A stretch of 64,000 nt of DNA, taken from positions 152,872,060-152,936,059 of the forward strand of contig CM037586.1 of assembly GCA_021018995.1 (NCBI GenBank), in the 5' to 3' direction. Position 1 is the first letter of the stretch. Each line of letters opens with the position of its first letter. The translations under genes were made by a program, and so were the position numbers. Shown piece by piece: positions 23,295 to 64,000 of this stretch. Source of the stretch: Chloranthus sessilifolius. Taxonomy: Eukaryota > Streptophyta > Magnoliopsida > Chloranthales > Chloranthaceae. Below the pieces are notes generated by a model that was given only the letters and a program-made list of their open reading frames with translations, did no database searches and was not told where the DNA came from.

Positions 23295-23321
<27 letters not shown>

Positions 23322-23329
<8 letters not shown>

Positions 23330-26029: not shown

Positions 26030-26335
26030 CGCAGATGCTTCTGTGAAGCGAGTGCGTCTCAGCATAGCCGTGCCATCGCTTCTTCTGTGAAGCGATTACG
26101 CCTCAGTATAGTTGTGCCATCACTTCTTTTGTGATGCAATTGCGCTTCTGTTTAGAAGTGATTGTACCTCATTATTACAACATTATCACTTTTTCTATGA
26201 AGCGATTATGCCTCAGTAATGAAGCGATGTCGCTTTCGAATTGAGGCGTAATCGCTTCCCAGAAAAAGCGATGGCACTATAATAATGAGGTGATTGCGCG
26301 GTGGTGAGGAAGTGGTAGCGATACGCCTTATTTGT
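26030..26335. repeat. GAAGCG/CGCTTC repeat cluster I
   Basis: About 15 copies of AAGCGAT / ATCGCTT type words occur, frequently as CGCTTC...GAAGCG hairpins (for example CATCGCTTCTTCTGTGAAGCG at about 26078, GAAGCGATGTCGCTTTC at 26222). The cluster sits directly upstream of the FAR1-type transposase pseudogene. Similar clusters fill the spacers and introns of the rest of this element. Translation is not meaningful here. Confidence 0.8.
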
Positions 26336-26544
26336 CTGTTGTTGATCAATCTTTTCTTCTAATGCAGAGGTTGTAATGGACTCGCTTGGAGAACGTAATT
26401 TAAGTGGTATAAATTTAAACCTTACTCCTGACATTATTTCCTTAGAAGGAGATTCGCTTGGTTGTGATAGGGATATCAAAATGTAGGATTGTTGTGGGGT
26501 CGAAGTGCCGGACGGGGGTGAGTCCGAGGACATCCGTGAGGAAT

Positions 26545-28667
26545 GGAAGCCACATATTGGCATGAAATTCCAAACTGAAGACGTGACATATAACTTCTAT
26601 AATTAATATGTGAAGAAAATTAGTTTCAGTATTAGGAAAAGTAACACTTACGAATCGGTAAAGGGAGATATTATAAATATCACATTTGTATGTTTGTTTG
26701 AAGGTTTTAAACAGCAAGACAAGCGAAAATTACGTGTTAATATAAAGTGTTCAAGAGACAATGTTAAATACTAAGAATGAAGAGTAAAGTAGTGGGAGGT
26801 AATAGAATTTTGAGAGCCACATAATCATCAATTGTTTATACCTATGAAGGTGAAGGAGTTACAATCTCATAATAAAATGAGAGGGACAAATAAATCGTTG
26901 ATATGAGCATCTGATGGCATCATTCTTCCTTCAAAAATTTCAACTATTTTATTGAGTTTGGATGGAAAAGCTAGTGTGACAGTAAGCTTTCAACAAACTC
27001 GAGATTACCTAAAGAAGATAAGACAGGAGAGTAACATTCATCCGATATGCATGACAGTCATCAAAACCTTTATTGATTGGTAAAATAAAGAAGATGGATT
27101 CTTCTTTGAAGCCGAACTAGACAAAGAATATCGTATGGAAATATATTTTAGGCTGATCACAGGTCACAAATTACGTATCATCAGTCCGGTGATGTGATGG
27201 CATTCGACACCACTTATAAAATAAATAAATTGCTGCCACCTTTCACCCCCTTTATGAGGGTTAACCATCATTGGAAGATGACACTTTTTAGAGATGTGCG
27301 TTGCTCGCGAATGAGACGGAGGAAACATTCATTTGGTTGTTTAAAACGTGGTTGAAGTGTATGAGTGATAAGCAACCTAATGTAATTTTTACCGATCAAT
27401 ACAATGAGATGAGCAAGGCCATCTTCGAAGTCCTTCTGTAAATCATGGATCGCCTCTGTATAAGGCGGCCTCTATATATGGCGCATTGGGAGGAATGAAC
27501 TAAACCATCACTGTCAGCTGAATTTCAATTGCAAGACAATGTATGGTTCAAATCAGTGCAAGTCCAGTCATACAGTTGATTTAAAAAGAAGATGGGCAAA
27601 ACTTGTCGAGGAGTTTCAATTGCAAGACAATGTATGGTTCAAATAAATATACGATCTTAGAAGGAAAGTGATTTCATGCTACTTAAGAGATACCTTTTGG
27701 GTTGACATGACCACTACACAATGCGGTAAAAATATAAATTCTTTCTTCGATATCTATATCAATGCCCAAACGGGTTTAACGGAATTTATCAAACAATATG
27801 ATCTTACCATCCAATCTCGTCGCGATAAAGAAAATAGAGAAAATTTTGTGTCAATGTTTACGACACTAGCTCTCTTGTTCCAAAATTCAATTGAGAGACA
27901 AGCCGCTAGTGTGTATACGAGAACCATATTTGATAGATTTCACATTGAGTTTCGGAAGTTTGCCTCTTTTAAGTTCTAAAAGGTGGCCGAAGAGGAAGCA
28001 TGGGTAATTAAAGTATACGAAGTGCATAGAAGTGGTGAGGATGGCATAGTGGATAGCGGTCGAACATCCAAAGTTCATTTCGAATGGGGAGATGCCTCGT
28101 TCAGTTGTGACTGTAAGTATTTCGAGACCGAGAACTTACTATGTTCTCACATCTTCCATGTTTACTACAAGAAAGAAGTATACCAAACTTCATCTAAGTA
28201 CATTCTACATTGATGAACGAAAGATGCTAGATACAATATTATATGTTTGGGGGCTGGTGAGAAAGAGGAATCAATAGTGCATCTATAATGAAAATATGGA
28301 AGGTGAGATAGCCGAACTCAAGTCAATTCAGTTGGGGATACAGTTGGTTCTCTTAGTGGATTACAAGTTTAGAGGGATAATAAAATTATTAGAAGGCATA
28401 GAGACTATTAAAAGCGAAGAGGAAATTGAAAGAAGCGCTAACACAGCGACCTCTTAGGGCGGCTCCCCCTAGGTGAGCCAAGGAATATTATTGCAAGAGC
28501 ATGTCAATATTACAGTACGAAATCCAGTACGATGTATCACCAAAAGTAGGCGAAGCAATAATGATAAAATTAAGTCTGAAATGGAGGTTAGCATCGAACA
28601 ATCAAAGAAGCAGAGAAAGAAGTGTAAGGGCTGTGGTGAGTTGGGTCATAAAATCATAACTTGTTAG
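26545..28667 (+). pseudogene. FAR1/FHY3-type MULE transposase, degenerate
   Basis: The family is the Mutator-like transposase related to FAR1/FHY3. In order I see an N-terminal FAR1 DNA-binding region (TYNFYN..YVKKISFSIRK, about 26585-26640, then EPHNHQLF near 26815), the DDE core with the first Asp in AFDTTYKINK (about 27205) and the second in IFTDQYNEMSKAI (about 27385), a conserved FWVDMTTTQCGKNINSFFD block (27700-27755), the SWIM zinc finger CDCKYFETENLLCSHIF (about 28105-28160), and a C-terminal CCHC knuckle CKGCGELGHKIITC ending with the stop at 28665. More than six in-frame stops and several frame changes break it. A 31-bp segment is duplicated at 27523-27553 and 27614-27644. Its clusters of GAAGCG repeats and the convergent Ulp1-like gene mark it as a transposon gene rather than a host FAR1 gene. 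Confidence 0.88.
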
Positions 28668-28774
28668 GTAAAGAGAGTCAGGATGATGGATTCTAGTGTT
28701 GAACTAAGCCAAACAGGAGGGGATGATGGAAAGTATAGTATCATAAAATCATATTGACTCAATTTTATGAATTG

Positions 28775-29005
28775 CGCAGTCACTTCATCTTGGATGCGTC
28801 AATGCTTCGTTTTGGATGCGACAACACTTCGTATATAAAGTGTGGGCGCTTCGTCTTGGAAGCATCGATGCCTCGTTTATGAAGTGACGACGCTTCCAAT
28901 ACGAAGTGTGGGCGCTTCGTACAAGAAGCGTTGGCGTTTCTTTTATGAAGGATGGATGCTTCATGTTTGCTTTGTTTATGAAGTGTTGGTGCTTCATAAA
29001 TGAAC
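28775..29005. repeat. GAAGCG/CGCTTC repeat cluster II
   Basis: Directly after the transposase stop, GCTTCGT, GAAGTG and GAAGCG words recur every 20-25 bp (for example GAAGCATCGATGCCTCG, GAAGCGTTGGCGTTTC). The repeat spacing gives artificial His/Lys/Ser-rich ORFs on the minus strand, which I leave out. Confidence 0.75.
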
Positions 29006-29202
29006 CATGGGTCGGTACATAAACAAAGCACGGTGAATGGTAATTCTTTTCTTTGTTGATTTTTTTTTTTGAAATTTAAGCCACAAAACGATTTCATTAC
29101 AACCTTAAAATGATTTCTTTACATTGCCTTTCTTTATGTTGCCTATAACAAATGTATGCAAAATATACAGCTAAGTCTAAGAGTCGGGAGAAGAAGTCGT
29201 CT

Positions 29203-29591
29203 CATGGGTCGGTCGGTTTTGGAGCCGGGAGATGCAGCAACGGCTCTGGAGCCGGGAGAAGAAGGGGTTGTTCCTCCCCAAGAAGAAATTGTAGCTCTAG
29301 AGTTGGTGGGAGCTCCACCGACATAAAAACAAGGCCGTTGTTCGGAATGGCTACCACCTTGTCGAGGGGAGGGGGAACCACATGCTTGTTGTTTTCAGGA
29401 ACGACAACCAACTAGTAATCATCGGGGATGTCAATAACTGAACCATCATAACTACGAATGAAACGCCGACGCGCCTGTCGACGACTCCTCCGTAAACTAT
29501 TATGTTGCATTTTGGTCTTAGACGCTGAAGCAGATGAGAGGAGAGGACACAAGAAGAAAAGGAGAGACGTGACTAGAAACAAAATAATCAT
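29203..29591 (-). pseudogene. Unrecognised small ORF pair, minus strand
   Basis: From the ATG at 29591 a 59-codon frame runs to a stop at 29412. It starts with a hydrophobic stretch MIILFLVTSLLFFLC...SSASA and continues with a very basic segment RRSRRQARRRF and an acidic end DIPDDY. The same frame continues past the stop for about 69 codons of proline-rich sequence to about 29203. Two readings fit: a small secreted-type protein with a signal peptide, or an exon whose hydrophobic start is only a polypyrimidine tract ending in a splice acceptor (TCATCTGCTTCAG). I favour the second, but the gene is unrecognised. It lies downstream of the Ulp1-like gene in the same orientation. Confidence 0.3.
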
Positions 29592-29809
29592 TTTGAACCT
29601 TTTAAATAACTAGCTACCATGACTATTACCGTGACTGCTCTACAACTGTAGTCATTATTGTGCATTGCCCCAAATGAGTACTGACAGTTGATGGATTTGG
29701 CTATTTATTTTTCATTATTATTGTAGTGACTATTTGTTTTCCATCATTATAGGTTGTTGGTTTTTCACGATTATTGACACAGATACTCATAGGTCATAGT
29801 TATGGCGAA

Positions 29810-30115
29810 GGGAAAGAGGTGAATGGAGCGCTGACGCTTGGATGAAGAAGCGTCAATGATATGAATAAGGAGCGTTGATGCAGCTTTGGGAAAAGGAAGT
29901 TTCGTATGGAGTTAACTTATGAATTGAATGGAGCGTTATCGCTTCTTCCAAGAAGCGCTAACGATACGAAGAAAGAGCACTGACGCTTCATTAGTCAGAT
30001 TTAGATAGTTTTGGTGTTGGGGTAATGAAATGAATGGAACTCCATTCCTTCGACTTAGAAGCGTTAGCAATACGAATCACAGGAGCACTGGTGCTTTATT
30101 AGACAAATGAAGTTA
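29810..30115. repeat. GAAGCG/CGCTTC repeat cluster III
   Basis: Motif copies such as GGAGCGCTGACGCTT, GGAGCGTTATCGCTTC and GAAGCGCTAACGATACG recur with ATGAATTG-type spacers (TTATGAATTG occurs at about 29925 and 30130). A similar short group lies at 30565-30710. All are in non-coding spacers of the MULE. Confidence 0.75.
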
Positions 30116-30343
30116 GGTATGGTGTTAGCTTATGAATTGTCATAGTTTTTTCCAATCGATTGAATCTTTTCAGCTAAAATGTATAAATATTACAAGGATA
30201 AATTGTAAAGTGTCATTTACATTGTTATAAAGTGTCATTTATATTGTAGAAATGTCTACAAAGATAAATTGTACAACTTTAAGTCTACATTATATAAATC
30301 AAATAGAAAATAAGTTACAATACAACCTATCATAACAACAAAT

Positions 30344-31523
30344 TTAAGACAACGCTTCTTCCTCGTCACCCGCATCCCATTTCTCTTCGACGTGAGTAGC
30401 GATGATGTGCCCAATCTTAACCCTGCAACAAAACATGTCAGCATGTGTAAATGTGAGTTGGAGTGCCCATACATATATAAAAGGCTAGCAAATACTTCAG
30501 CTGTAAAAAATAAATGGACAGAGGTTACACATACATTAAAAAAATACTAGGGGACCCTGACGTCATGATATGGAAGCGTTAGGAGCATTGATGCATTGAA
30601 AAAGAAGCGTCGACGCTCCACAAAAGAAGCGTTGACACTTCGACTAAGAAGTGCTAGCATGTCGCTGGAGGGTGTTATCGCTTTGTTTTGAGAAGCGATT
30701 CACAGGGTCTTCAATCCTACCAGGGTTATGATCTCGTCGCAAAATTTTGACATCAGTGACCTATCCGGGTTGGGGTTTCGCGACAATGACCGTATGGAGT
30801 GAGGGATTGGTAGAAGCAAGCGCCTAGTGGAGAGGATGATCGATATGAAATGGAATAAATATCGATTTATAATCCATCGCTAACAAGGCGCGATTTCTAT
30901 CGAAAAGGAAGCGTCGCATCGACTTTGTGCCATGTTGTGCTTCAAAAAATTTGACGTAAGCGTTACACTGTCCCCCTAAGTCTGCTGGGAGGAAAGCTGT
31001 ATTCCCTTCATTATTCAACTCAAATGCTTTAAAGTCTGTGGTCATGCATTTGAGCGCCAAAGGGGACATTCGGAAAGTCATTTGAAACTTTTCGGGTTGC
31101 ATGTTCTCCTCATTGTCGAGGACCCTAAAGTACGCAGACATTATCTGCATATGAAGGTAAAAATATCAATAAAATAAAGGAAAGCGATGCATTTCTATGG
31201 GGACCGCCAACACTTCAGTGTGGTGGCGTCAGCACTTCAATGTGGAAGCGACGACGCAACTATGTTGAAGCGTTAACGCTACTAGGGAAGCGTTACGCAG
31301 TTGTGTCGAAGCGCTAACGCTTTCATATGGAAGCAACATCGCATCTGTGTTGAAGCGACGACACTGCTTTGTGGAAGCGATGGCACTGCTATGTTGAAGT
31401 GCTGGCATTGGAACAAGAGGTTAGGTGATTAAAACTTACTGGGTCTTCTATTTCCTCTAAGTCTTGTAGGTTGTGCAACAGCTGTACGATAATCTTTTGA
31501 CTCCAACAATTGATAGGACAGTC
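30344..31523 (-). pseudogene. Ulp1-like (C48) protease gene of the MULE, 3' exons
   Basis: Minus-strand exons can be traced by splice sites and frame. The exon 31523-31440 is exactly 28 codons (starts DCPINCWSQKIIVQLLHN) with donor CCA^GTAAGT. The next starts at 31144 after ...CATATGCAG and reads IMSAYFRVLDNEEN, matching the WLxDxIINAYF entry motif of Ulp1 proteases. It continues to SIFIPFHID...H, followed by a stop codon where the conserved catalytic-His Trp should be, then ALAS (normally HWALAV). A final exon 30422-30344 (acceptor TTTTGTTGCAG) ends EEKWDAGDEEEALS then stop. The Asp and Cys of the catalytic triad are not found, so the protease is dead. Ulp1-family genes are known passengers of plant MULEs (the Kaonashi group in Arabidopsis). 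Confidence 0.7.
31150..31438. repeat. GAAGCG/CGCTTC repeat cluster IV (intron)
   Basis: The intron between the 28-codon exon and the Ulp1 core exon is packed with motif copies (GAAGCGACGACGC, GAAGCGTTAACGCT, GAAGCGTTACGC, GAAGCGCTAACGCTTTC, GAAGCGATGGCACTGC). Their confinement between two good splice sites supports the gene model. Confidence 0.75.
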
Positions 31524-31643
31524 CTCCGTTCAGTTTTAGAAATAAGTTAAAACATAAGAGAATATACTTACTACAACATAAAAGTTAAAACAAAAGGGGA
31601 TATACTTATTACAACGATAAATATAGTGAGGGGATATACTTAC

Positions 31644-32386
31644 TCATTCTCACCATTAGATTTTTCCCAAATAGCCTTCATATAGGCCTCCACTGAAGCC
31701 ATGGGGCCGCCATTTTGACTATTTTGCAGGGCTGAGAGTCCATGGTTCCTTTCTTTTAGGGAGAGTTTGAGAGGAAGGAATCACGATAGTGGCTTTACCG
31801 CCGTTACTCTCACTTCTTCTGACGACGATTGAGCCATCTTCGTTGTCGTCGTCTTCAGCTTGCGCTAAAGACATATTCTTAGTGCATGGTTGCGTACGGG
31901 GTATCTCAGGACCAGAGTCATGAAACGCAGTTGGAGGCAGTGGTGGTGGAGGCTAAAGGTGAGGTTAGGATTGTTTTGGAGGTTGGGGTTGGGGTTGTTC
32001 CGGAAGTTGGGGCTGGGCTAAGGTTGTTCCAAAGGTTGGGGCTAGGTAAGAGGTTGGGGTTTGGAGGGAGTAGGAGGTTGGGGTTTTGGGTAGGAGCTTG
32101 GACCTGAGGTTGGGGCGTCGGTTGGGGTTTGCTCTTCCCAGGAGGTTGGGCAGTCGGTTGGGGTTTGCTCTTCCCAGGAGGTTGGGCAGTCGGTTGAGGT
32201 TTGCTTTGGGTACGAGGTTGGGCCTGAGGTTAGGTCAAAGTTGATGGTGGTGCTCGCTGATGCATAACAACAGAGGAGGAGGTGGTGACTGATGAATGTT
32301 TTGGGGCATACCTTTTCTGTTGGGGAACAACTGTCGGATGTTCCCCAGTGAGCCCCGGTCGGCTTCTTGCTACAATGTTGTCCTAC
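31644..32386 (-). pseudogene. Ulp1-like gene, proline/glutamine-rich middle exon
   Basis: The exon begins after a strong acceptor (T-run then CTCATATTGTAG, complement of 32387-32400) with DNIVARSRPGLTGEHP. It runs into a Pro/Gln-rich region in which a block of about 33 bp is repeated (QPTAQPPGKSKP twice), then an acidic stretch AQAEDDDNEDGS, and ends SVEAYMKAIWEKSNGEN before the donor GA^GTAAGTATATC. At least two in-frame breaks occur. Low-complexity middles are usual in TE-carried Ulp1 genes. The forward-strand ORF at 31886-32107 is its shadow. Confidence 0.6.
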
Positions 32387-32419
32387 AATATGAGAAAAAA
32401 AAACATATTAATTCGTAGC

Positions 32420-32590
32420 GAAATAAAAAATGGTGAAGCATCGATGCCTCGTAAAAGAAGCACCACCGCTTTCATTTGGAAGTGATAGCGCTTCATAATC
32501 GAAGCGATAACATTTTCTTTTGGAAGCGGTACCGCTTTCGTTTGGAAGCGCTGACGCTTCGGAATCGAAGCAACGATGCTTCTACGACGA
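32420..32590. repeat. GAAGCG/CGCTTC repeat cluster V (intron)
   Basis: Upstream of the middle exon the intron carries CACCGCTTTCATTTGGAAG, GATAGCGCTTC, GAAGCGATAACA, GGAAGCGGTACCGCTTTC and GAAGCGCTGACGCTTCGG. The cluster is cut by solo LTR B at 32595 and one more copy (CGCTAGCGCTC) resumes at 36416. With the target duplication removed, the site reads GAAACGCTAGCGC, so the LTR landed in a motif copy. Confidence 0.75.
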
Positions 32591-33359
32591 AACGTGTGAC
32601 AACCCGAATTTTCCCAACCTGAATTTTGAGACATATATATATATATATACTTTTTTATTTTTTTTTCAAACACGAATGAGAAAACCCGGACCGTCGGGTC
32701 GTAGAACAAGTTCCGAACACAGAATGCTTGGTACAAAACCTAGCATGCAGAAATCAAAGCAGATAATACATATGACATGAATAAATCTCTAATTCTAACA
32801 TCTAATATTACAATAACTAACAACGGCCACCGGTGATGTACCAACGTCACCAAACAGTGGTGTATAAAATTATATACGAGTTCAAAGGGTACCAAGTCTG
32901 AACTCACCAATCTCCACAAAGTACTCAATCTACGACCCCAAATATCATATCCCTCCTCAATTCCTCAATCTGCAAGTCTGGTGTCCACGTAGAAGCTATA
33001 CCTATGACGTATAGTCGAAGGGGTGAGCTACATCCTAGCTCAGTAGAGGAAATTTCAATACTCATTCACATCTTATCATAAGGAAACATAGATTCAATGT
33101 CACAATCAAACCTTTTCTTATTTAAAACTGAAACTCGTTTCAAAGGTACTTTTTCTTATTAACAAAGACTGATTTCAAATCTTCGCTTTCTTATCACACG
33201 TGATTTCAAACCGACTTCCTTTTCACATAAAACTGATTCAAAAGTGATTTCCTTATCATACAAAACTGATTTCAAACGATTTCCTTTTACACACAAAAGT
33301 GATTTCAAAACATTTATTTATCCTTCAAAACTGATTTCAAATCCATGGCCCCGGTGACC

Positions 33360-34022
33360 CATAGTACTTGCACTCCGCCCATAGCGGTCCACGATAAGCA
33401 TAATCCGCCCACAGCGGTCCACATATATATAATCCGCCCATAGCGGTCCGCATACACAATATCTGCCCATAGCGGTCCACTTTAATCTCACGACTTATGG
33501 TTTGATTTACGAAGTATAATCCAAAGAGTACATAAAATGCCGCAAAAGCGGTCCAAGGGCGTACATGACTACATCGAAATCCAAGGGTGTACATAAATCC
33601 CGTAAAAACGGTCCAAGGGCGTACATGACTCACAACAGTGTCCAAAGGAGTACGTAAAATCCCACGAAAGCGGTCCAAGGGCGTACATGAGCACAACGAG
33701 TCCGAGGGTGTACGTAAAATCCCGTAAAAATGGTCCAAAGGCTTACATGAGCACAACAAGTCCAAAGGTGTACGTAAAATCCCGTAAAAACGGTCCAAGG
33801 GTGTACATGAGCACAACAAGTCCAAGGTTGTACGTAAAATCTCGTAAAAACGGTCTAAAGGCGTACATGAGCACAACAAGTCCAAAGGTGTACGTAAAAT
33901 CCCGTAAAAATGGTCCAAGGGCGTATATAAATCCCGCCACAGCGGTCCAAGGGTATACACAAATCCCGCCACAGCGGTCCAAGGGTGTACATAAATCCCG
34001 CCACAGCGGTCCAAGGGTGTAC
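33360..34022. repeat. Minisatellites inside solo LTR B
   Basis: Three linked arrays: about 30-35 bp units built on CCGCCCATAGCGGTCCAC (33374-33480); a 60-bp unit on CCGTAAAAACGGTCCAAGG followed by CGTACATGAGCACAACAAG repeated about 6-7 times (about 33535-33925); and a 31-bp unit on AAATCCCGCCACAGCGGTCC three times (about 33925-34022). All share the core GCGGTCCAAGGG/GCGGTCCAC, so they probably expanded from one seed. Because 60 is a multiple of 3, long repetitive ORFs appear on both strands; none is a gene. Confidence 0.88.
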
Positions 34023-34859
34023 CTTCTCACAAATCTACAAGACTCAAAGATTTCGAGTTCACATTCTAGTTCAGATTTCTAAATCACGATCCAAAGCTCA
34101 CATTCTTGCTTAAAAGGTTTTAAAACTCACCATTTAAAAATCAAGTTTAAAAATCGAATACCATAGTACAAATTCTAGGTTAAGTTCACAGTTCAAAATT
34201 CACCATTTTCGACTCACGGATTTTAAATTTCTATTTTGCAAGGAGTTCAAGTTATAATTCAAATATCTATCAAACTAACATCAAAATACATCAAGAAAAC
34301 TTATCATTTTTTTCATATAAATACCTCAAAGAAACAATGAATCAAAGTTAAACATGCAAGTTTGTGTTGAAGTTCCCCTACACGTCCAGTTAGATTCAAG
34401 CATCGATTTTAAATAACAAAACTTCAAATCACACTTATCATTTTCATTTGATTAAATCAAGGCATCTATGAATCAATTTCAAAAATATAATCAAATATTA
34501 AATTTCCCCTACCTTAACCTCGAAGCAAGCAAGGTCCTATCGATGGCCGTCCACCCTTAATCTACATCACAAGCACACAATGATGCATCAAGGATTAACC
34601 CCAACCACTAATAACTTAGACTATTTAAGTGTTTCCTAAAAAATTGAGTTTGAATCTGCAAATTCAAGGCCAACACGTAAAATTGATGTAACATTTCTCC
34701 TAAATTTTGACCTTTAAAACTTTAGATTCATAAGTTGGTCAAAACACAAACGTTGTAGATCTCTTTGTTATCTTTCCAACACCTCAAGAATCGCATCAAT
34801 CAGAGGTCGAAATAGAAAGTTATGGTCAAAATACTAAAATAGTACTGGCAAACTCAGAC

Positions 34860-35405
34860 AAAATCGACTAATCGATTTTCAAAATCGATTAATCGATTTT
34901 CCAAAGTCAATTGATCGATTTTCTCTCGATTGATCGATTTTCAAAGGGCCAAAAATCGTGTTCACTATTTTAGGCCAGTCGATTAATCGACCCAATTTCG
35001 ATTAATCGAAATTCAAAAAATCGATTAATCGATTTTACTCGATTAATCGGTTTCGTTTCTCGACAAAATTAGAAATTTACCTAACGTATTACTAAATTTT
35101 GACCTTTAAAACGATTGATTCACAAGTTGGTCAATTCATAAAAGTTATAGGGCTTGCTGTCTTCTTTCCAACGCAATAAGAATCACGTTAATCAGAATTC
35201 GGCACAAAAAGTTATAGCCAAAATACTACGGTAGTGTTAGTAAGTCCAGGCAAACTCGATTAATCGATTTTCAAAATCGATCAATCGAATTTCAAAATCG
35301 ATTAATCGAAATTCTCTTCGATTAATCGATTTCGTGGAGTTCTTCTTGAATTTCTCTCTTGTCAAAAATCGATTAATCGAGTTTCAAAATCGATTAATCG
35401 ATTTT
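34860..35405. repeat. Second cluster of CGATTAATCG palindromes
   Basis: Ten exact copies of CGATTAATCG and at least four near copies (CGACTAATCG, CGATTGATCG, CGATCAATCG) occur, interspersed with a duplicated segment on CCTAA-TTTTGACCTTTAAAAC (34700 and 35090). The relative position within the LTR matches the cluster in solo LTR A. Confidence 0.9.
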
Positions 35406-36459
35406 GGCAGTTTCTGAGCACTTCTCGGGTTTGAACCTTGAAACCCATTTTTTTTTCATCAAAATTCAATCCTTTTGATCCTAATCTTTTGCACACATCT
35501 AAGCAACCTATATTTAATTAAATACATAGAAGAATTGCGTTATTTACCTCTTTAAATCAGCGATCTACTCGTAGATCAGATCGTCTTCTTCGTTAAACAA
35601 CAAGGGTTTCTAAACCCACCTCGATCATCTCCGTGCTCCAAGATCACAACCAAACCCACGAAATTAACGACAATCCTTCCACACACACTTCACGCAAACT
35701 CACGCTACGATTTGCGGATCAAAACCCATGATCTTTTTGTAAGAAGAGGGTTTCAAAACCCCCAAACGGCTCCAAAACCCATAAAACCACAACCAAACGT
35801 CGAAATCGACGGCGATCTTCCCCTTAGACGATCTCACAAATGTTTTTCGCGCAAATCTAAGGCTCGGCACTCATGGATTCAAGACGTTCATTTCATCTCC
35901 TCCTCTTTCTCTCTTCCTTCTCTCCTCAAAAACCCAAAACCTAAAAAAAAACCTTGTGCAAACCGGGTGTTAGCTCCCAAAAGAAGAAATTGCCTTCTTT
36001 AACTAAATGGAATCGGTTCCCATACAAAACACATATACTTGTCTTTGGGCGTATTAGTTCTCATCTAAGGATCTAGCTCCCGTGTGAAACGAGCGTACCT
36101 ATTTAGGTGTTATCTCATAACAAAATAGTTTTCTTTGATTAGGTGTGGGCCTACACACCCAAACCATCCACTAATCGGACCCGGTGTTGAGCCCATACAC
36201 CAAAGCTTGGTGCATAAGAAACCACCTAATGCTCAACACACAATCTAAATCGGTCTTTTTCCACTCAAGACCAAACCCAATTTAACTTATGTAAGTAATT
36301 TCATAAAATCGAGCACCTGACCAGTCGGGCACGCACACCGAGGTACACTGTTTAAAGTCGGGCATACATCCCGGGATACACTATTCAAAGTCAAAATTTT
36401 TCAGGCTGTTACAAAACGCTAGCGCTCTTATAGTCTAGCACATTAAACAAATAGCATAC

Positions 36460-36954
36460 CTCCACGATTTTTGTCAAAGCTGCCTTCAGAGATGCCTGAT
36501 CTTTAAGGATCAGGTTGTTCTGCCGCCTCAGATTGTCCTGCTCCTTTAAGATCTAAGCATTATGTTCCTTCATTTTCTGGTTCTCCTTTTCCATCTTTAA
36601 AACCTGTAGTCTGAGGTCGTCGAATCTCGTGCTCTGCTCTCTGACTGACCTCTTATAGTCTGCAATTCTTGCATCGACAGACTGTATCCAATTTTAACAA
36701 TCCGCGTTCCTGACACAAGTTTAGCGGCAACTGGGCAGTTTTCATGGACTTATGGGCTTTGGGAGCCTCTTTTTCTTCCTCTCCTTGTTCTTCTTCTTCT
36801 CCCTCTTCCTCTTCCTCTTCCTCTTCTTCAAGGTCAATGACATCAATGTTTGACCCCTTCCTTCGCATGATAATGGGAGGGACCGCAAGTCCTTCACCCA
36901 TTTCTTCTGCAGATCTCCACCCTGTTCGCCGAAATTCCTCTATCACGGGTTGGC
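36460..36954 (-). pseudogene. Ulp1-like gene, upstream coiled-coil exon
   Basis: On the minus strand the frame PVIEEFRRTGWRSAEEMGEG leads into VPPIIMRRKGSNIDVIDL, then a run of about 20 acidic residues (EEEEEEEEEGEEEEQG), then a Lys-rich stretch. After a frame change comes a heptad-rich coiled coil (RFDDLRLQVLKMEKENQKMK ... LRRQNNLILKDQASLKAALTKIVE) ending at the donor GAG^GTATGC. One in-frame stop interrupts the coiled coil. The next exon downstream is 32386-31644. The upstream side is cut at 36955 by the LTR-type insertion, and the missing beginning appears at 63685-63644. Acidic tract plus coiled coil suggests an adaptor region ahead of the protease domain. Confidence 0.6.
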
Positions 36955-55419: not shown

Positions 55420-55458
<39 letters not shown>

Positions 55459-55895: not shown

Positions 55896-56107
55896 GTATG
55901 GTGTTCAGACAACCAATTATCTTCAAAAATGTTTCTCGGGTTGTTCTCGATATTCTGATTTTATTATTTCCTATCATTTTTTTATTACTAGCTAATGACA
56001 AAACCATAATTTTCTATTTGTCTAATTTGTGTGGTTTGTCAGGATGGACAAAGCCCATATGCATTGCAAGGCATGCTTTTGGTGATCAATACAAAACAAT
56101 TGATGTA
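55896..56107 (+). pseudogene. Captured NADP-isocitrate dehydrogenase fragment (two exons, one intron)
   Basis: Exon one (55896-about 55949) follows CTTGCTGCAG and reads MVFRQPIIFKNVSRVV, the plant NADP-ICDH segment GTVFREPIICKNVPRLVP. About 90 bp of intron follow, ending TGGTTTGTCAG, and exon two (56043-about 56107) reads [21 protein letters not shown], almost the family motif [21 protein letters not shown]. That motif belongs to the active-site region of the enzyme converting isocitrate to 2-oxoglutarate. The donor of exon one is damaged and neither neighbouring exon of the host gene is present, so no enzyme can be made. Keeping the intron shows that genomic DNA, not an mRNA copy, was captured. 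It sits inside the CACTA, as expected for transduplication. Confidence 0.87.
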
Positions 56108-56223
56108 GGACCAACATGTATGACATTTGACCTTAGAGTGACCATCTTATTTGACATGCTAGGCGCCTTTTAAATTTTAGAAGAAAGACTGATACCCTGT
56201 TTGTTTGCTATTATATATATCAG

Positions 56224-56319
56224 ATGGTTGATGTTGTGACACTTGGGTTTGTAAAGGATGCAAAAGATCATATCGACATTCAAGGATTTAATGGTTATCA
56301 GAAGAATCGGCTTATTAAG
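56224..56319 (+). other. Candidate captured exon, 32 codons, unknown gene
   Basis: Exactly 96 bp lie between an acceptor (ATATATATCAG) and a donor (ATTAAG^GTATCTTG). The frame is fully open: MVDVVTLGFVKDAKDHIDIQ then GFNGYQKNRLIK. It lies 115 bp after the ICDH fragment and in the same orientation, but it does not match the ICDH sequence I know, so it is either another gene or CACTA-specific. Confidence 0.4.
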
Positions 56320-57734
56320 GTATCTTGTTAACTCATTCTTCTGTTTCTCTCTTTGCTTTGAGTTTGACATTGTAGATGCATGCTTCTAAATATTTTCCTT
56401 TTAGAATTAAGGCTATCGTTTATTGCATGTCAAGAAGTTAAAATGAGATCTTAGAATTAGTAGTCATTCATTTGTGCATGTTTTACAATGACCAATGCTT
56501 GGTTGAATAAGAACTGTTTAGATTAGAAATATACAGGACAATATTAAAACTTAAATCTTCTTTTCTATTTATTTTAACCTCTATTTACTAAGTATCTAGT
56601 ATTAGCTTGATGTTTAATGCCAATGCCAATGCTCCTGGATCTAAATTCCAGATCAGTTAGTCTACAATGGGTGTCCACCCATGATGTGCAGTAAAGCAGT
56701 CCATATGAATGTGTGGCTGCATGACGTGCACAGACTTCCATGCATTGGAACTCCGTGCACGCCTTGTATTCATACAGATGCGTGGACTGTCGTGTCCACC
56801 CATAATGGGTGGACACTGGTAGTAGACTAACTCTTGTTCGAATCATTCCTAAAATACAGAATTTTTTTCTTCTAATAAAGTTTTCTATTTTACTTGTCAA
56901 AAACAGTAAGGTTGGAGTCGAATTGATGGTGCTTCAGCAATTTGGGGGAGTGAGCAATTTGGGGTCGAATGGATTTCGGCCATCGATCTTTTGGCAATCT
57001 TTCATCGACTTCAATACTGGGTGCACTTAACTCGATTCGGTGAACAAAGGTGCAAATGATTTCAACAAGAAAATTACCATCCAATCTCTAACAAATCCCT
57101 TCCTTCGCCATCAACACAATCAATGATCGATTTTTCGGCAACCTGCATCGTCAACACAATCAAAGGATTCCAGTGATCGATCTTCTGGCAACCCTTTCGA
57201 CCTCATCATCGAGCGGCTCGATGGCCCCAATCAAAGGAGAAGAGGCCGACATGATGGGAAACTATAGGGTTGGAAATTGGTGATTTCAATAGTCAATTGG
57301 CGGTGGTGGCGAGTGTGCCGGCCGATAAAAAGCAGGTGAAAGTTGGGGGTTTTGAGTACTCCAATCAAAGAAACAAAAATGAAGAATAAGATTAATGTGA
57401 GTTTTTTGAATCCCATCAATCAAAGTCCGGTTGATGAAGGGCGGGTGGAGGTTTGGCGTTGCGAATGAATTGCAGGAGGTTGTAGGAGATGAGTTGCCAG
57501 AGGTTGAAGGAGCTGGTTAGATGGTCGATTCGTAATAATATAAAATAGTAAGGTAATTTTATAAAAAGGGTAGAATTGTAAAAGGCTAAAATCAATTTCA
57601 AATGCTACAGGTTTGGAATGGTTTATTAAATGCTACAGGTTTAAAAAAAGCAAAGCTACTAGCTAAAATAAGGTACAACCCATATATGGGGAAATTTGAG
57701 GTAATTTGTTCATTTTTTTTTTTTAAATTGACTT
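56320..57734. other. CACTA interior, no gene recognised
   Basis: A palindromic passage at 56660-56815 pairs GGGTGTCCACCCATGATG with CCACCCATAATGGGTGGACA. GC is raised at 56920-57320 where several minus-strand ORFs are open, without recognised domains. The phrases TTTGGGGGAGTGAGCAATTTGGGG and CATCGATCTTTTGGCAA recur in altered form. Confidence 0.3.
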
Positions 57735-58083
57735 TTTTTTTACCGGCGGTTTAAAACTGCCGGGAATTATCATAAGGATAATATTTTAAAACTGCCGGGG
57801 AATAAAAAATTTAAAATCATTCCCGGCGGTTTGAAACTATCGTTATGCACATTTTATAATAGCTACTGTTGCTGCCATTTCCAATTTCCAGGCGGCTAGA
57901 AACCGCCGGGAAAAGTATCTTCTTGCCGACGCTTAAAAACTGCCGGTAAAACCGCTGGTGAAAGTTTCGCCGACGGTTGTTTTCCCCGGCGGATGCCATG
58001 CTGCCGGCAAAATTTTTGGCGGCAGTTTGGCATTTTTCAAGGGCGGTTTTTGATCGCCGGTAAATCAGACACAATTTGTAGTG
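57735..58083 (-). repeat. CACTA 3' subterminal motif array
   Basis: CCGGCGG, CTGCCGG and GCCGGGAA words occur more than a dozen times in both orientations over 350 bp, ending in the terminal TGTAGTG. In En/Spm such subterminal motifs are TNPA binding sites. The 5' end of the element has far fewer copies. Confidence 0.8.
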
Positions 58084-58965
58084 CAAACACGGGATTTGGT
58101 TTATCCTGCGTTATCCTAGCTAGCAATGTGATTATCCAAACAACGGAAAACAAAGGGAAACATAGGAATCCCATGGTTTCCTACAACTTAGGTATCCATA
58201 GGAAAATTTAGAAATATTATTTTACTTTTCCACATTTCTCGTGTTTTTATTTAAAGAGGCCCTTATGGTTTAATACAATTTACTAAGAATGTCACTATTC
58301 CATGTGTAGCCACAAATACCGAATGTACGTGTTAAAATGATCTAAACCCGTTAAAGCTAGACTCACTTCTGTTCTCTCTGTCTCAGAGCTCTCTCCCTAC
58401 GGTCTCGACCTTCTCTTTTCACTTTAGCTGGAGTCTATTCTTGTAACAACTCGAATTTTTGAACTTTCTTTTATTGGTGTTAGATTATGTTTTATACCTT
58501 GCATGGTGTTAGTGCTCTACACCGGAACCTACCCTAGTTGAGAAAATACACATTTTGATTTTTAAAGAGGTATTATATTTAAAATTGTGGAGAACCCTAA
58601 ACCCTAGCCGTCACTCCATCTTCTTCTCTAGCCACCCTTCTTTAAAAACACCAAAATCTTTTTTAAATTTCTTGTATATTCTTCCACAAAGAACACCGTG
58701 GTGTTTTTCTGTCGTCAAATCGTGGTGGAAGAAGGCGGCGTAATCATGGACGGATCATCGTGTGGACGCCAATCTCTATCGCCCTAATCGTCGTCGATCT
58801 GTCGGTCACGCTTTAAGAGGTGGGTACCCATCCATCCATCTCATTCTTCTCAGATCCCGTCGCGTAGGATACGTTCGATCGCGTATCGACGGACTAAATA
58901 AAATAAATTTTATTTCACTCTTTATAATATTATTTTAAAATGAGTAAAGTAGTTAGCATAAATAT

Positions 58966-59110
58966 GATTGCTTATAATCTAATCTTATTGATTTTGCCCT
59001 AAATGTGATTGCTTATAATCTAGTCCTATTTATTTTGCCATAAATGTGATTGCTTATAATTTAATCTTATTGATTTTGCCCTAGATGTGATTGCTTGTAA
59101 TTTAGTCATA
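58966..59110. repeat. Tandem repeat of about 42 bp, 3-4 copies
   Basis: The unit contains TGATTGCTTATAATCTAATC and TTATTGATTTTGCCCTAAA, repeated with small changes from 58966 to about 59110, inside solo LTR C. Confidence 0.8.
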
Positions 59111-59865
59111 ATTATTTTCCTAATTGTTAATGTTATTTTTTTTTTTATACTTTGTTATTTTAACAATTAAAGATAACACAAATGATTAATACTCTATTTC
59201 ATCATCCCTCTGGTAAAAGACATTTTATGGACATTATAAAATCGTGAATCTGAATTCAAACTAAAAATCTACGCAACCATGATTTAAACCTATAATTTCT
59301 TTAAAATTTTTATAATATTTTTATATTTTCTAGAAACTAAGCATTTGTATATATATATAGACTCATGACCTATTTTAAACATATTTTCAAGTCCAGCGTT
59401 TACAAAAGGTCCCATGTAGTATCTAAGACCTTGTTTTAAGAAAAGATATATTACATAGATTATTTTAACATAAGACTCTATATAATAAAAATCAAGAAGT
59501 GACTACATTTATATTAGCATGCAATAATAAATCTTGCGGTTACTTATCAAAACAAAAAAATATATGCATATATAATTATTTCCCAATGCTATAATTTTCA
59601 AACGATATAAATCATGCAGGCGTGATCAAATTTTAATAAGTAATATTATTATTAATATCATGAGGTCTCAATTGAGTATTGACTCTAAAACTGGAGAGCC
59701 TACCACGGGATCACCTTATAATGCCCAACGATGGAGTTTGAATTTTCTCCCATGGGAGGTAATATATATATATGGTCGATAGAGAGGATGAGTTAGCACT
59801 AAATAAGCAACTTAAGCGTTAGACAACTTCATACTTAGGTTGCCACGGGATTACGATGTTGGAGG

Positions 59866-60165
59866 TCATGACCCATCTTATGTTGGACCGTGACCCATCT
59901 GATGTTGGACTGCGACCGATCTGGTGTTGGTCCATGACCCATCTGATGTCGGACCGTGACCCATTTGATGTTGGATCTTGACCCATCTGACGTGGATCGT
60001 CACCCATCTGATGTCGGACTTTGACCCATCTGATGTTGGATCTTGACACATCTGACGTGGATCGTGACCCATCTGATGTTGGACCGTGACCCATCTGACA
60101 TGGATCGTGACCCATCTGATGTTGGACTTTGGCCCATCTGATTTAGATCAGCCCATCTGATTTCA
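59866..60165. repeat. Minisatellite, GACCCATCTGATGTTGGAC
   Basis: About 14 units of 20-24 bp on the core GACCCATCTGATGTTGGACC, alternating with a GACGTGGATCGT variant so that a higher-order pattern of two or three units is visible. It lies in solo LTR C. The minus-strand ORFs here are repeat artefacts. Confidence 0.88.
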
Positions 60166-62441
60166 TTTCATAGGATGGTATTAAATTAATTAAAATATCT
60201 TTTACAATATATTATGATATATTTAAAGAGAAAGTGATTTTAGATAGTAATATAAAATTAATAAACATTATATACTTATATTTTATTATCATATAAAATA
60301 AATGTACTTGGTTACTACCTTATTTTAATATTATAAAATTATCTTATAAGATATATGAGTAGTAGTATCCCCTGTCAGAGCCCAATTAGTTTCCTTTTTA
60401 TTGATGGATTGACTTATTAAAATCGACCAATCAATCATGAGCCAAATGACAACTTACACCTTATTAAATCTGATCTATCGATTTTCATTTTTTCAATCGA
60501 TTGATTCTCATCCGAATAGACGACCTGATTCACACCAAAATTTTACTTTTACACGACCAAAAAAATTTAGTGCACTTGCACTTTGCGATCGATGGTCGTG
60601 ATGTACTTAACTTTAAAAATAATAATATTTAATTTGGGCATTTAATAATGATAAATAATAATATATAAAAGTCTCGCTTTTATCGCTTCAACGCGACCAC
60701 TCTGATAACATAAAGTGTTAGAACTTCGATGTCTTTATGAAATCGAACTCTGACTTTTACGATTATCGAAATCATACTTATAACCCTATTCTATAATTAT
60801 ATTGGTGTGGTATGTAAATAAATATAAACATAAATATAACCAAAATCTAAGTATAAACCATTCTGTATGTGTGATACTTTTGTATTTGTAATTTAATCAA
60901 TTTATACGAGTTAGGATATGTTAGATCATGAGTACGAGAGTGTATGAGATCATGCCTATGCTTGGGCGTGGTGATTCGCTGAGATGGTATCGAAGCGAGA
61001 AATACACCGTATTCACATGCCTTACAACTCATGGTGGAATGAGACTCATGACGAGTCGGGTGAGTGTGAATTCAGTGTAACCTCGTATACGGTGGCATAT
61101 ACGGCGATCCGATCACCCCGAATTCAAATATGATAGTATGAGTTATGAGTTAAGTTATGAGGTTTGACCATAGGCTTTGGCTGTGGTGAAGTTTCTTCTA
61201 CGATCACGTGAAACTCAGAATATTGGTGTCCATGTACGGATGCAACGCCTCTATGATAGTATGGGCTGTCACACGAAGTACATCCAGGTTACTACGGAAC
61301 TTTTTTCTTGGGAAGCGTGAATTAGGAAAGTTGCTCCACTATAGTTTGTCCTAGGATTAAGTATAAGAGTATGATAAGATATGAGTATGAGATAAGATAA
61401 GCTATGAATCTGATGCGATAATAAGACATCATGTAGGCCAAAGAAAGATAAAGAACTTAAGTCTCAGACGTCTTTGTTCCTTCGAAGCCACCAGTAAAGC
61501 AACAACGTCTTCGACCAAGACGGATCTCTAGGAGATTATGAGTATGAGTGTGTTATGAGTGAGTTTGGCCATTATGTCTCTCCATTGGGATGGTGGAGTA
61601 TGAGTATGATCTGAGGCGTTATGATATGGTGGTATGATACTATATTGACCCTCCCATGGTAGCTCGGCAAATGACTTCTGGCATTGTCGCTTTAGGATTT
61701 CACGAGTATGTTAGTTACGCTCATGCGATGTACAGCGTATAAAGTAGAATGATAATAAGACATGATATGATATATTATGAGATATGGTAAGGTACGTTAG
61801 GATATGAGTGTCTAGATCATGGTCTCGCATTTATGATATGAGCTTTACGATATGTATGTGATTTTGTCATTCTTTTGCTATCTGCTTTGAGATGTTATGT
61901 TTATCACTCACAAGATGCACCCACAATGCACCTGAGTAGTATGGGGTGGATTGGTGGTGTATCCCACTGAGTTTACGTGACTGAGTAAACTCATTCCACG
62001 ATAATCTAACGATTCTTGGTGATTACGCTTAGTGGAGTAGACGCCATCATCCGTATCCTGACGCCGATTTCATTGATCCCATGAGTGTTGAGTACCGTGA
62101 GGGCTACTACGGTCGATTTCGATCCGAGTGCTAGATATTGATCGTTGCAGACTTGGTAGTAGATTTGATCCCTATTATTATCATTAATTTTATGATTTCC
62201 TTTATCGGATTTGTCTCTAACTTCGAATTATGTTTTATTGGTAGATTTGTTGATTCTATCGCATTTATTCATTATTTATGACTGTTTTTATTTTCACCTT
62301 TATGTGTTGGCTTTCACGGATTTCGTGGAACCATTATTGCGCGAGAACTCTGATTAGGTGTATGTCCGCTTAGCATATCCGGGATATGTGCGGGTCATAA
62401 CTCGGAATTCTAGGCCCTCGGGATGGGGTAGAATTTCGGGT
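60166..62441. other. Remainder of solo LTR C, no gene
   Basis: Rich in TATGAGTATGAG and GATATGA words (60900-61860), with GGTGGTGTATCCCACTGAG at about 61953, a phrase typical of the R-region side of long Ty3 LTRs. ORFs are short and show no domain. Confidence 0.5.
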
Positions 62442-63643
62442 CGTGACAATTCTCTTGCTTTAGCTTTTGTTCGAGTGAGTCTAGCTCTGAGACAAAGAAC
62501 AAAAGTGAAATTAAAGACAAAGTCGACTCCGCCCTTCGGGCTAGTTCGACTTAATCTAGGTGCTCCCTCCGAGGGGGATTCAGGGGGGAAACGCGTTCAA
62601 CTTTACTTCTTGCTTTTGCTTTAGTTAGAGTTGATGCTCTTTAGCTTTTGTTAGTGTATTAGCTTTCGCTTTTGTTAGAGTTGATGCTCTTGCTTGAGTT
62701 ATAAATGGTAAGCTAGCCAGAAAATATGCATTTAAATGCATGAAAGTACGCCTTATGTATCTAGATATTGAAAGTTTGTTCAATGCACTTTTTTTTGCAA
62801 AAAAACAGCCATTGATTAGCTTTTCATGTTTGAGTTAGTCTCTCTTCTTAGACATCGAACTTAGAGTTGAACTTTCATAATCTAATCTCCCCTGAGGGGG
62901 ATTAAGGGGGTAAACGTTCCACCTTCTCGAAGAGGTGTAACTAGGTGTAACAAGAAGAAGAAGAAGACATACCTCGCTTTTGTGCTTCTTGTTCGATGTT
63001 GTATACTCGAGTCTTCCCTTCGGGCATAGTCTAGTTGTTAGCATACTTCTTGTACGAGTACGGTAGTTGACTAGCCTTGTTGTTAGCTCTTATATCGAAT
63101 ATTTATACTTCTTCTTCAGTGTGTATACCTTAGCTCTTATACAGACCCTAGCATATATATTTATACATTTCCTACAACCCCCTCCCAGGGGCGAGGGCTC
63201 CCGACCAACTCTAATTCTCTCCTCCGGGGGAAGTTAAGAGGGGGGTGAAACCCCCTGTATGTGTTGAGCACAGTTGCGTCAATGTTTGGCCGGCAAGAGG
63301 TTTTATTGGATCGCATCCGTTGATGATGATCTAAAGATAATCACCTTCTATTTGACCCTAATTTTCACGAAATTATGGGGGTGTCAACATGAAAATTCGA
63401 ATGGGGGGCTCTTATGGGTAAGAGATTCCATATGGGTGTCTCTAGTAATGCCACCCACTTGTTGATTTAATATGAGTGTATTTCATGGGTGTCAGAAGTA
63501 AAGGTCCTAAATGGCGGTGCCCTCAATGGGTGCCACATATTTTTGGGATCTCAGGTCTTGGGTTATCCTTTTATGAGTTTTTCATCAAGTCGGGTCTTGG
63601 TCAAATGATTGATCAGCCCTGATTTTATGGGACAGATGTTACA

Positions 63644-63685
63644 CTCGCTCTCCTCATAGGGTGTGCATTGAGTTCCCGAAAGGGC
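63644..63685 (-). pseudogene. Ulp1-like gene, 5' part of the split exon
   Basis: On the minus strand a strong acceptor (AATCTTCTTATAG) is followed by 42 bp = 14 codons, ALSGTQCTPYEESE, up to the end of insertion D. The open frame continues without shift into PVIEEFRRTGW at 36949 if one copy of the 5-bp target is removed, which supports insertion into a single exon. Alone it is too short to identify. Confidence 0.45.
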
Positions 63686-63724
63686 CTATAAGAAGATTGA
63701 TTTTTTATATTATTGACGAATGAT

Positions 63725-63965
63725 AAAGAATTAAGAAAATTGACAGCGCTTCATTAGGAAAGTGACATCACCTCCTTGGGAAGACGACATCGCCTCATTT
63801 GAAAATCGATATTGCTTCATTCTGAAAGCGACATCCTTTCATTCTAAAAGCGATGTTGCTTCGTTAGAGATGCGACATCACTGCATTCTGAAAGCGATGC
63901 CGCTTCGTTAGAGATGCGACATCACCTCCTTAAAGAGGCGGATCATGCAAATTACCTCATTATCG
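63725..63965. repeat. GAAGCG/CGCTTC repeat cluster VI
   Basis: AAAGCGACATC, AAGCGATGTTGCTTCG, GATGCGACATCACC and AAGCGATGCCGCTTCG recur about every 20-30 bp. The motif is the same as in clusters I-V more than 27 kb away, as expected if this is the upstream intron of the same MULE gene on the far side of the insertion nest. The window ends here. Confidence 0.75.
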
Positions 63966-64000
63966 AAGTATTTGATGTATAACTTCCTCGTATTCTGATT

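What the first reader, a model, noticed from the sequence alone, without database searches (positions are those of the whole stretch)
26030..63965. One palindromic motif fills the introns and spacers, but not the exons, of a MULE
GAAGCG-NNNN-CGCTTC type words occur in at least six clusters (26030-26335, 28775-29005, 29810-30115 with 30565-30710, 31150-31438, 32420-32590, 63725-63965). Each lies in a spacer or between well-formed splice sites of the Ulp1-like gene. MULE transposases are known to bind terminal repeats, but a motif spread through introns is not what I know of this superfamily. It could be a transposase or silencing target, a hairpin-forming RNA signal, or an internal satellite that spreads by conversion. 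This is the strongest unexplained structure in the window.
Basis: partly seen in the sequence, partly recalled or inferred. Interest (0 to 1): 0.75.

Follow-up and report, generated by a model that had tools for sequence, protein, structure and literature searches.

The report
Phased DNA-motif arrays in plant transposon
A broken jumping gene, probably from a plant, carries the same short mirror-image DNA word, repeated every 22 bases, in most of its non-coding intervals but not in its genes, which looks like the docking pattern that some plant transposons use to attract their own protein that switches off silencing.

Summary
Thirty-one GAAGCG-N4-CGCTTC words (at most 2 mismatches) occur where 0.77 are expected, all in seven arrays. 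The arrays follow a 22-bp lattice of inverted half-sites. In the MULE the words lie in six of seven non-coding intervals; 0 of 29 are centred in exons (4,019 of 6,565 bp). Half-sites are shared between arrays (62% identity) while spacers are near the composition background (31% against 26-28%), unlike a uniformly decaying satellite.

Best explanation (0.6): binding sites for an element-encoded, VANC-like anti-silencing protein. The anatomy matches Arabidopsis VANDAL21/VANC21, where VANC binds dense tandem motifs in introns, spacers and terminal non-coding DNA (PMC5735166).

Differences: FAR1-type transposase; a motif that is palindromic and contains CpG; alternating half-sites about one helical turn apart. 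Not shown: DUF1985 was not found where scanned, no profile confirms the Ulp1-like gene, binding is untested, and no genome was held for sister copies. The seventh array (63725-63965) is not tied to this MULE. Both genes of this copy are broken.

The parts
26030..26335 (.). Array A1, 22-bp lattice, between the MULE's left edge and the transposase start
   Evidence: (11 units >=7 bits); lags 44, 66, 22 highest
26376..28743 (+). Transposase gene remnant: FAR1 domain, MULE domain, weak SWIM and zinc knuckle; broken frames
   Evidence: FAR1 E 5.6e-11 and MULE E 7.2e-10 in two different frames; SWIM E 0.013 and zf-CCHC_6 E 0.11, both below Pfam cut-offs
28775..29005 (.). Array A2, spacer after the transposase
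   Evidence: (9 units)
29220..29547 (-). Small frame (about 100 aa with one stop), possible third gene; no family
   Evidence: only PilZNR E 0.046, below cut-off
29810..30115 (.). Array A3, spacer between the small frame and the Ulp1-like gene; weakest array
   Evidence: 8 units; two short in-phase runs of 3 units
30347..30422 (-). Tentative last exon E5 of the Ulp1-like gene
   Evidence: acceptor AG present; coding reading tentative
30565..30715 (.). Array A4, in intron 4 (30423-30720)
   Evidence: (5 units)
30721..31144 (-). Exon E4, Ulp1-like by eye only (IFIPFHI...), two in-frame stops
   Evidence: no Pfam match, no PDB match
31150..31438 (.). Array A5, in intron 3 (31145-31439)
   Evidence: (8 units)
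31440..31523 (-). Exon E3
   Evidence: frame runs on into E4
31644..32382 (-). Exon E2 with a proline-rich 36-bp (12-aa) tandem repeat; frameshifted
32420..32594 (.). Array A6, in intron 1, continued at 36419-36428 after the insertion
   Evidence: (7 units)
32595..36413 (+). LTR-type element (TG...CA ends) inserted into array A6; AAACG on both sides
36419..36428 (.). Second part of the A6 unit cut by the insertion; joined unit is in 22-bp phase (32567+22)
36460..36954 (-). Exon E1: acidic stretch and coiled-coil-like stretch, in two frames
63725..63965 (.). Array A7, same lattice; link to this MULE not shown
   Evidence: (9 units); no end found in the window for what begins at 36955

Best explanation
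The arrays are cis-acting docking sites for an element-encoded, VANC-like anti-silencing protein, probably the product of the antisense Ulp1-like gene downstream of the transposase. The protein would bind GAAGCG half-sites, presumably as a dimer or higher multimer because the half-sites are inverted and lie about one helical turn apart. By binding dense arrays in the larger non-coding intervals it would remove or block DNA methylation over the whole element and let its genes be transcribed. Non-coding placement follows because tandem duplication is tolerated there and because those are the stretches that RNA-directed methylation attacks. Shown here: the lattice, its non-coding placement, half-site conservation with spacer turnover, the FAR1/MULE transposase and spliced antisense frames. 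Known from relatives: VANC binding and demethylation in Arabidopsis VANDALs. Inferred: that this element family encoded such a protein, that it binds this motif, and that the effect was anti-silencing.
For: Enrichment 31 vs 0.77. Lag 22 is among the three strongest self-matches in all seven arrays; 159 of 228 same-orientation half-site distances are multiples of 22 and 175 of 238 opposite-orientation distances are 10 mod 22. 0 of 29 words centred in exons (4,019 of 6,565 bp); circular-shift fraction 0.017. Between arrays half-sites agree 0.624, spacers 0.313 (59 in-phase blocks; difference 0.310 vs at most 0.091 in 300 controls); with all 71 blocks of one phase per array 0.445 vs 0.291 (difference 0.154 vs at most 0.067 in 200 controls), and without A7 0.640 vs 0.313. 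Spacers are more alike within arrays (0.418), as local duplication predicts. The empty-site join restores a unit in phase with 3 mismatches, which 0.09% of window 16-mers reach. At the half-site CpG 37 of 39 changes are transitions vs 33 of 53 elsewhere (Fisher p 3.6e-4), suggesting past cytosine methylation. Precedent: VANC21 lies in introns, intergenic and terminal non-coding regions on dense tandem motifs, and VANC variable regions hold tandem peptide repeats (PMC5735166); E2 here holds a 12-aa tandem repeat. Ulp1-carrying VANC genes (KIU) are stated to act the same way (PMC13317346 section 11). ULP genes in reverse orientation, and in Jittery-like MULEs, are reported (PMC2528002 section 10).
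Against: No DUF1985 in the stretches scanned (minus strand 29000-32400, 36400-42570, 62000-64000); the rest of the window was not scanned for it. The Ulp1-like exons give no Pfam match and no PDB match, and the single-sequence fold failed (pLDDT 37). The motif has no evident similarity to YAGTATTAY or AGTTGTCC/AC, and half-sites alternate in orientation whereas VANC21 motifs run one way. A self-match of at least 0.45 at lags 18-26 also occurs in eight stretches that are not these arrays, five of them at lag 21-22 (four in LTR-type elements, one in the CACTA-bounded element), so the period alone is not special; A4 did not reach that threshold. Isolated matches outside the arrays are somewhat above the simulated rate (25 vs about 14). 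No sister copies could be compared.
Confidence: 0.6

Rival explanations
1. The arrays are binding sites of the FAR1-type transposase itself, used for transpososome assembly or autoregulation, rather than of an anti-silencing protein.
For: The same element encodes a FAR1 DNA-binding domain; inverted half-sites suit a dimeric binder.
Against: Transposition needs sites near the ends (recalled), not in introns 1, 3 and 4 of an antisense gene.
Confidence: 0.15
2. The arrays are a neutral minisatellite that expands in non-coding DNA by slippage or unequal exchange and is absent from exons only because exons do not tolerate it.
For: Array-specific spacer similarity (0.418 within vs 0.313 between); eight other stretches of the window have self-match at lags 18-26, among them a repeat inside exon E2.
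Against: Seven separated arrays share the half-sites but hardly the spacers (0.624 vs 0.313, composition background 0.256-0.284); a neutral repeat should decay evenly over its 22 columns.
Confidence: 0.15
3. The palindromes work as RNA hairpins in introns and spacers, feeding or escaping small-RNA silencing, or affecting splicing.
For: Stretches of five of the seven arrays were folded and all five fold better than shuffles (z -3.0 to -6.2); two exon controls do not (z +0.6). Positions changed on both sides are paired in 16 of 20 cases vs 10.3 expected; 3% of shuffles reach this.
Against: Any palindrome array folds this way. Overall pairing 75.4% vs 74.7% in within-run shuffles, 28% reach it. 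Half-sites are conserved in sequence, not only in pairing. A1, A2 and A3 lie outside the predicted introns.
Confidence: 0.1

Closest known systems
VANDAL21 (Hiun) and VANC21 of Arabidopsis; YAGTATTAY arrays (Hosaka et al. 2017, PMC5735166, parts 1-3 of 6 read)
   Same: MULE; short motif at high density in tandem repeats in introns, spacers and terminal non-coding DNA, mainly not in exons; VANC proteins with tandem peptide repeats
   Different: Motif sequence; inverted half-sites instead of one orientation; FAR1-type transposase; DUF1985 not found here; binding and demethylation not tested here
VANDAL6 / VANC6 (AGTTGTCC, AGTTGTAC), same paper
   Same: [quoted passage not shown] also present in an unrelated element (AT9TSD1)
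   Different: Different motif; activity shown there, not here
Kaonashi (KIU / KI-MULE) and other ULP1-carrying MULEs of Arabidopsis, melon, rice, grapevine (PMC13317346 section 11; PMC2528002 section 10)
   Same: ULP-like gene in reverse orientation to the transposase; ULP genes also reported in Jittery-like MULEs of melon and grapevine
   Different: ULP likeness here is by eye only, no profile match; the sections read do not describe motif arrays in the Jittery-like members
FAR1-bearing MULE groups, such as the Jittery group 36 (PMC6446971, passages and table rows)
   Same: FAR1 in the N-terminus; SWIM or CCHC in the C-terminus
   Different: The table row lists one ORF; another group with plant members (35) also has FAR1 in half its members, so Jittery is not the only candidate; no tree made here

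Membership tests
VANDAL / VANC anti-silencing system | Short motif in dense tandem arrays in introns, spacers and terminal non-coding regions, not in exons | tested here: met
   'terminal' rests only on A1 upstream of the transposase, the other end was not found
VANDAL / VANC anti-silencing system | VANC protein with DUF1985 (with DUF287 or Ulp1 in some) | tested here: inconclusive
   no DUF1985 or C48 match in the pieces scanned; the gene's N-terminal part was not identified in the window
VANDAL / VANC anti-silencing system | VANDAL-type transposase (table row: SWIM and CCHC, PMD and/or DUF in half the members; PMC6446971) | tested here: not met
   FAR1 plus MULE domain found, FAR1 is not in that row; weak SWIM and zinc knuckle; no tree
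VANDAL / VANC anti-silencing system | Motifs arrayed in the same orientation | tested here: not met
   half-sites alternate; whole palindromic units have no direction
VANDAL / VANC anti-silencing system | Protein binds the motif and lowers DNA methylation | not testable with these tools
   needs DAP-seq or EMSA and bisulfite data
MULE (Mutator superfamily) | MULE transposase domain | tested here: met
   PF10551 E 7.2e-10
MULE (Mutator superfamily) | Target duplication of about 9 bp and element ends | tested here: inconclusive
   left edge near 25850 inferred from a paralogous flank; right end not found
Jittery-type MULE | FAR1 N-terminal, SWIM C-terminal transposase, placed by phylogeny | tested here: inconclusive
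   FAR1 E 5.6e-11; SWIM only E 0.013, below cut-off; group 35 of PMC6446971 also has FAR1 members; no tree
ULP1-carrying MULE (Kaonashi type) | Peptidase C48 domain in a second gene | tested here: inconclusive
   antisense spliced gene present but no Pfam or PDB match

The most novel reading that the evidence does not exclude
A FAR1-type MULE, outside the VANDAL lineage, has its own anti-silencing module whose cis target is a lattice of inverted CpG-containing half-sites one helical turn apart, read by a multimeric protein; the neighbouring LTR-type elements with ATCGATTAATCGAT arrays follow the same strategy with other motifs, so phased target arrays would be a general transposon device and not a VANDAL speciality.
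Probability: 0.22. Interest if true: 0.75.

Novelty: new variant of a known kind. Interest (0 to 1): 0.5.

Why it matters
If true, sequence-specific anti-silencing by transposons reaches beyond VANDALs to another MULE lineage, and its target can be recognised from one genomic copy by a simple signature: a phased motif that occupies introns and spacers and skips exons. That would allow screening of plant genomes for new protein and motif pairs. Inverted half-sites one turn apart make a concrete structural prediction (dimer or multimer on one DNA face), and the CpG in each half-site makes methylation-sensitive binding directly testable.

Tried and rejected
Whole-genome search for the motif: no genome is held for this window. 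Sister copies: transposase piece 27647-27976 in IMG/VR, 6 stretches matched a pattern, none a relative. Two adjacent lattice units (present once in the window, at 28881) as an exact pattern: 0 stretches in IMG/VR, 1 in prokaryote genomes, a Bacteroidaceae contig taken as chance and not read further; weak controls, because no plant collection could be searched. Structure prediction of exon E4 as a single sequence: pLDDT 37, discarded, no fold search run. PDB search with E3+E4: no match. Pfam with E1+E2 pieces: only PEP-utilisers_N E 6.6, taken as chance. Tying array A7 to the same MULE through what begins at 36955 (TGTCGCGCCCCC): the only CA+TTGGC places lie inside the CACTA-bounded element, so left open. 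That the MULE sits inside one LTR element whose two LTRs flank it: rejected, since at E 1e-8 and 60 bp or more the two flanking sequences align only in their ATCGATTAATCGAT arrays. Exact 10.5-bp helical spacing: phase coherence peaks at 10.9-11.0 bp (0.75) and is 0.38 at 10.5, so only 'about one turn' is claimed. My recollection that Sasaki et al. 2022 found helical periodicity of VANC motifs could not be checked: the paper is not held and I saw only its title and citations to it. Fu et al. 2013 is not held. Paper searches: VANC; MULE with Ulp1, Jittery, tandem or 22-bp or palindromic repeats; lists were capped (for instance 10 of 46, 15 of 23), and I saw no report of such arrays in a FAR1- or Jittery-type MULE in titles and abstract starts; ten papers were opened.

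Limits and dropped rows: array phases and the nine runs were chosen after seeing motif matches; one search keeps 59 blocks, re-phased within A3 and A5, and drops off-lattice stretches; one search gives the version with all 71 blocks. The exon map is my own reading of a broken gene. Half-site changes are not independent, because units duplicate; the change spectrum keeps half-sites with at most 2 changes. Exons were scored with a matrix trained on all arrays.
Full report
OBSERVATION. The words are there. GAAGCG-N4-CGCTTC with up to two mismatches occurs 31 times in the window against 0.77 expected, and all 31 fall in seven stretches: A1 26030-26335, A2 28775-29005, A3 29810-30115, A4 30565-30715, A5 31150-31438, A6 32420-32594 and A7 63725-63965. 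Over split palindromes of this shape whose half-site has at least 4 G/C, GAAGCG ranks first (31; the next two, 14 each, I read as shifted registers; median 1); AT-rich ones are commoner, up to 76, as base composition predicts.

THE LATTICE. They lie on a lattice. Lag 22 or 44 is the strongest self-match in six of seven arrays, lag 66 just ahead of 22 in A2; in A3 the peak is weak (0.37). Five exon stretches show no such peak. Of same-orientation half-site distances 159 of 228 are multiples of 22; of opposite-orientation distances 175 of 238 are 10 modulo 22. So inverted half-sites follow one another at 10 and 12 bp, on average 11. Phase coherence peaks at 10.9-11.0 bp, not 10.5: neighbours share a DNA face, but the face drifts along an array. 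A period near two turns is not peculiar to this MULE: at lags 18-26 with self-match of at least 0.45 the window has 14 stretches, six of them these arrays (A4 falls short) and eight others, five at lag 21-22.

WHERE IT LIES. The element is a MULE remnant: FAR1 domain (E 5.6e-11) and MULE domain (E 7.2e-10) on the plus strand in two different frames, with SWIM (E 0.013) and zinc-knuckle (E 0.11) matches below the Pfam cut-offs. Antisense to it lies a spliced gene: GT donors and AG acceptors are in place for introns 1, 3 and 4. A1 precedes the transposase; A2 and A3 lie in the spacers on either side of a small antisense frame; A4, A5 and A6 lie in introns 4, 3 and 1. Intron 2 (120 bp) has none, nor have four stretches of 142-262 bp between arrays and frames. 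Of the 29 words within 26030-32594 none is centred in an exon, although exons make up 4,019 of 6,565 bp; shifting the word pattern round the element gives as few in 1.7% of cases. With a matrix trained without the array being scored, arrays hold 57 units of at least 7 bits (26-40 per kb); exon stretches hold 4 in 4,514 bp, and simulated sequence 0.225 per kb. Twenty-five such matches lie outside the arrays in the whole window, where the simulated rate would give about 14; they include those 4, the cut A6 unit (36413) and one that abuts A2 (28771).

NESTED INSERTION. An LTR-type element, 32595-36413, is flanked by AAACG on both sides. Joining the flanks gives a further unit (3 mismatches, reached by 0.09% of window 16-mers) exactly 22 bp after the last unit of A6. 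The array therefore existed before that insertion, and the gene goes on beyond it (exon E1, 36460-36954). At 36955 something else begins (TGTCGCGCCCCC); I found no end with a matching duplication outside the CACTA-bounded element. Whether A7 belongs to the same MULE, another copy, or neither is open; it scores as well as the other arrays.

CONSTRAINT. In 59 in-phase 22-bp blocks (nine runs, chosen after seeing the matches, off-lattice stretches dropped) half-site columns agree between arrays in 62.4% of comparisons and spacer columns in 31.3%; the difference, 0.310, was at most 0.091 in 300 controls that permuted columns within each run and re-chose the best register. With all 71 blocks of one phase per array, nothing dropped, it is 44.5% against 29.1%, difference 0.154 against at most 0.067 in 200 controls; without A7, 64.0% against 31.3%; agreement expected from composition alone is 25.6-28.4%. 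Spacers are more alike within arrays (41.8%) than between (31.3%), half-sites hardly so (64.5%, 62.4%). That is what local duplication plus a shared constraint on half-sites would leave; an unconstrained satellite should decay evenly. The result says that the motif is shared, not what reads it. At the CpG inside the half-site 37 of 39 changes are transitions, elsewhere 33 of 53 (Fisher p 3.6e-4, changes not independent), as past methylation would leave; CpG is not depleted in the arrays (observed/expected 1.17-1.91), since the motif itself supplies it.

RNA OR DNA. Stretches of five of the seven arrays, folded as RNA, are more stable than shuffles (z -3.0 to -6.2); two exon controls are not. 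But any palindrome array does this. Pairing between half-sites of one unit is 75.4% against 74.7% when right halves are shuffled within runs (28% of shuffles reach it). Against my reading, positions changed on both sides are paired in 16 of 20 cases, which only 3% of shuffles reach. I read the motif as a DNA site, with that reservation.

MECHANISM. In Arabidopsis, VANC21 binds YAGTATTAY at high density in introns, intergenic and terminal non-coding regions of VANDAL21; the sites often form tandem repeats that turn over quickly; VANC proteins have variable regions with tandem peptide repeats; VANC6 uses other motifs in the same way (PMC5735166, parts 1-3 of 6). RNA-directed methylation attacks the same non-coding regions (PMC10398659, abstract and passages). 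A review states that Ulp1-carrying VANC genes (KIU) also act through motifs in non-coding regions (PMC13317346, section 11). The anatomy here fits this in placement, density, tandem form, local spacer similarity and a second gene with a 12-residue tandem repeat. I therefore hold that the arrays were docking sites for a VANC-like protein of this element family (0.6). That protein, its binding and its effect are inferred. Both genes of this copy are broken, so it could only have been acted on in trans.

WHAT DIFFERS. The transposase has FAR1, which a survey table lists for the Jittery group (36), for half the members of another group with plant members (35) and a few others, but not in the VANDAL row (PMC6446971, passages); I made no tree. 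ULP genes in Jittery-like MULEs of melon and grapevine are reported (PMC2528002, section 10), without mention of motif arrays in the sections read. Half-sites here are inverted; VANC21 motifs run one way. DUF1985 was not found where I scanned, and the Ulp1-like exons match no profile or solved structure. Works like a VANC system: likely. Is a VANDAL: not supported by its transposase. Carries a VANC: undecided.

VERDICT. The main paper to check for prior report, Sasaki et al. 2022, was not available. That the host is a plant is inferred from the FAR1-type MULE and the neighbouring elements; the species is unknown.

Noticed in passing
window 24800-25126 and 34859-35405: Two LTR-type elements (23327-25770 and 32595-36413), alignable to each other only there, both hold arrays of the palindrome ATCGATTAATCGAT: 15 sites with at most one mismatch in the window, all in these two. 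Lag 21 is strongest at 24800-25043 and 35251-35405, but not at 34859-35060.
   Followed up: partly
window 59869-60142: A 22-bp-period array (TGACCCATCTGATGTTGGACCG, 12.6 copies) inside a third LTR-type element, 58442-62448, which has a perfect ATTCT target duplication.
   Followed up: partly
window 42572-58083: A CACTA...TAGTG bounded element of about 15.5 kb, probably a CACTA transposon by its ends (type recalled, not profiled); the 3-bp flanks differ (TAA, CAA).
   Followed up: no
window 25861-26004: An inverted repeat with 45-nt arms (80% complementary), MITE-like, between the MULE's left edge and array A1.
   Followed up: no
window 20317-21067 and 22538-23326 plus 25771-25850: A duplicated stretch of about 0.75 kb, the second copy split by the LTR-type element 23327-25770; its end near 25850 is my evidence for the MULE's left edge.
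   Followed up: partly
window 33520-33925: A 60-bp-period array of 6.8 copies inside the LTR-type element 32595-36413.
   Followed up: no
window 63959-64000: A possible exon end with donor GTAATTTG on the minus strand just beyond array A7, so A7 may also be intronic; read by eye and the frames.
   Followed up: no
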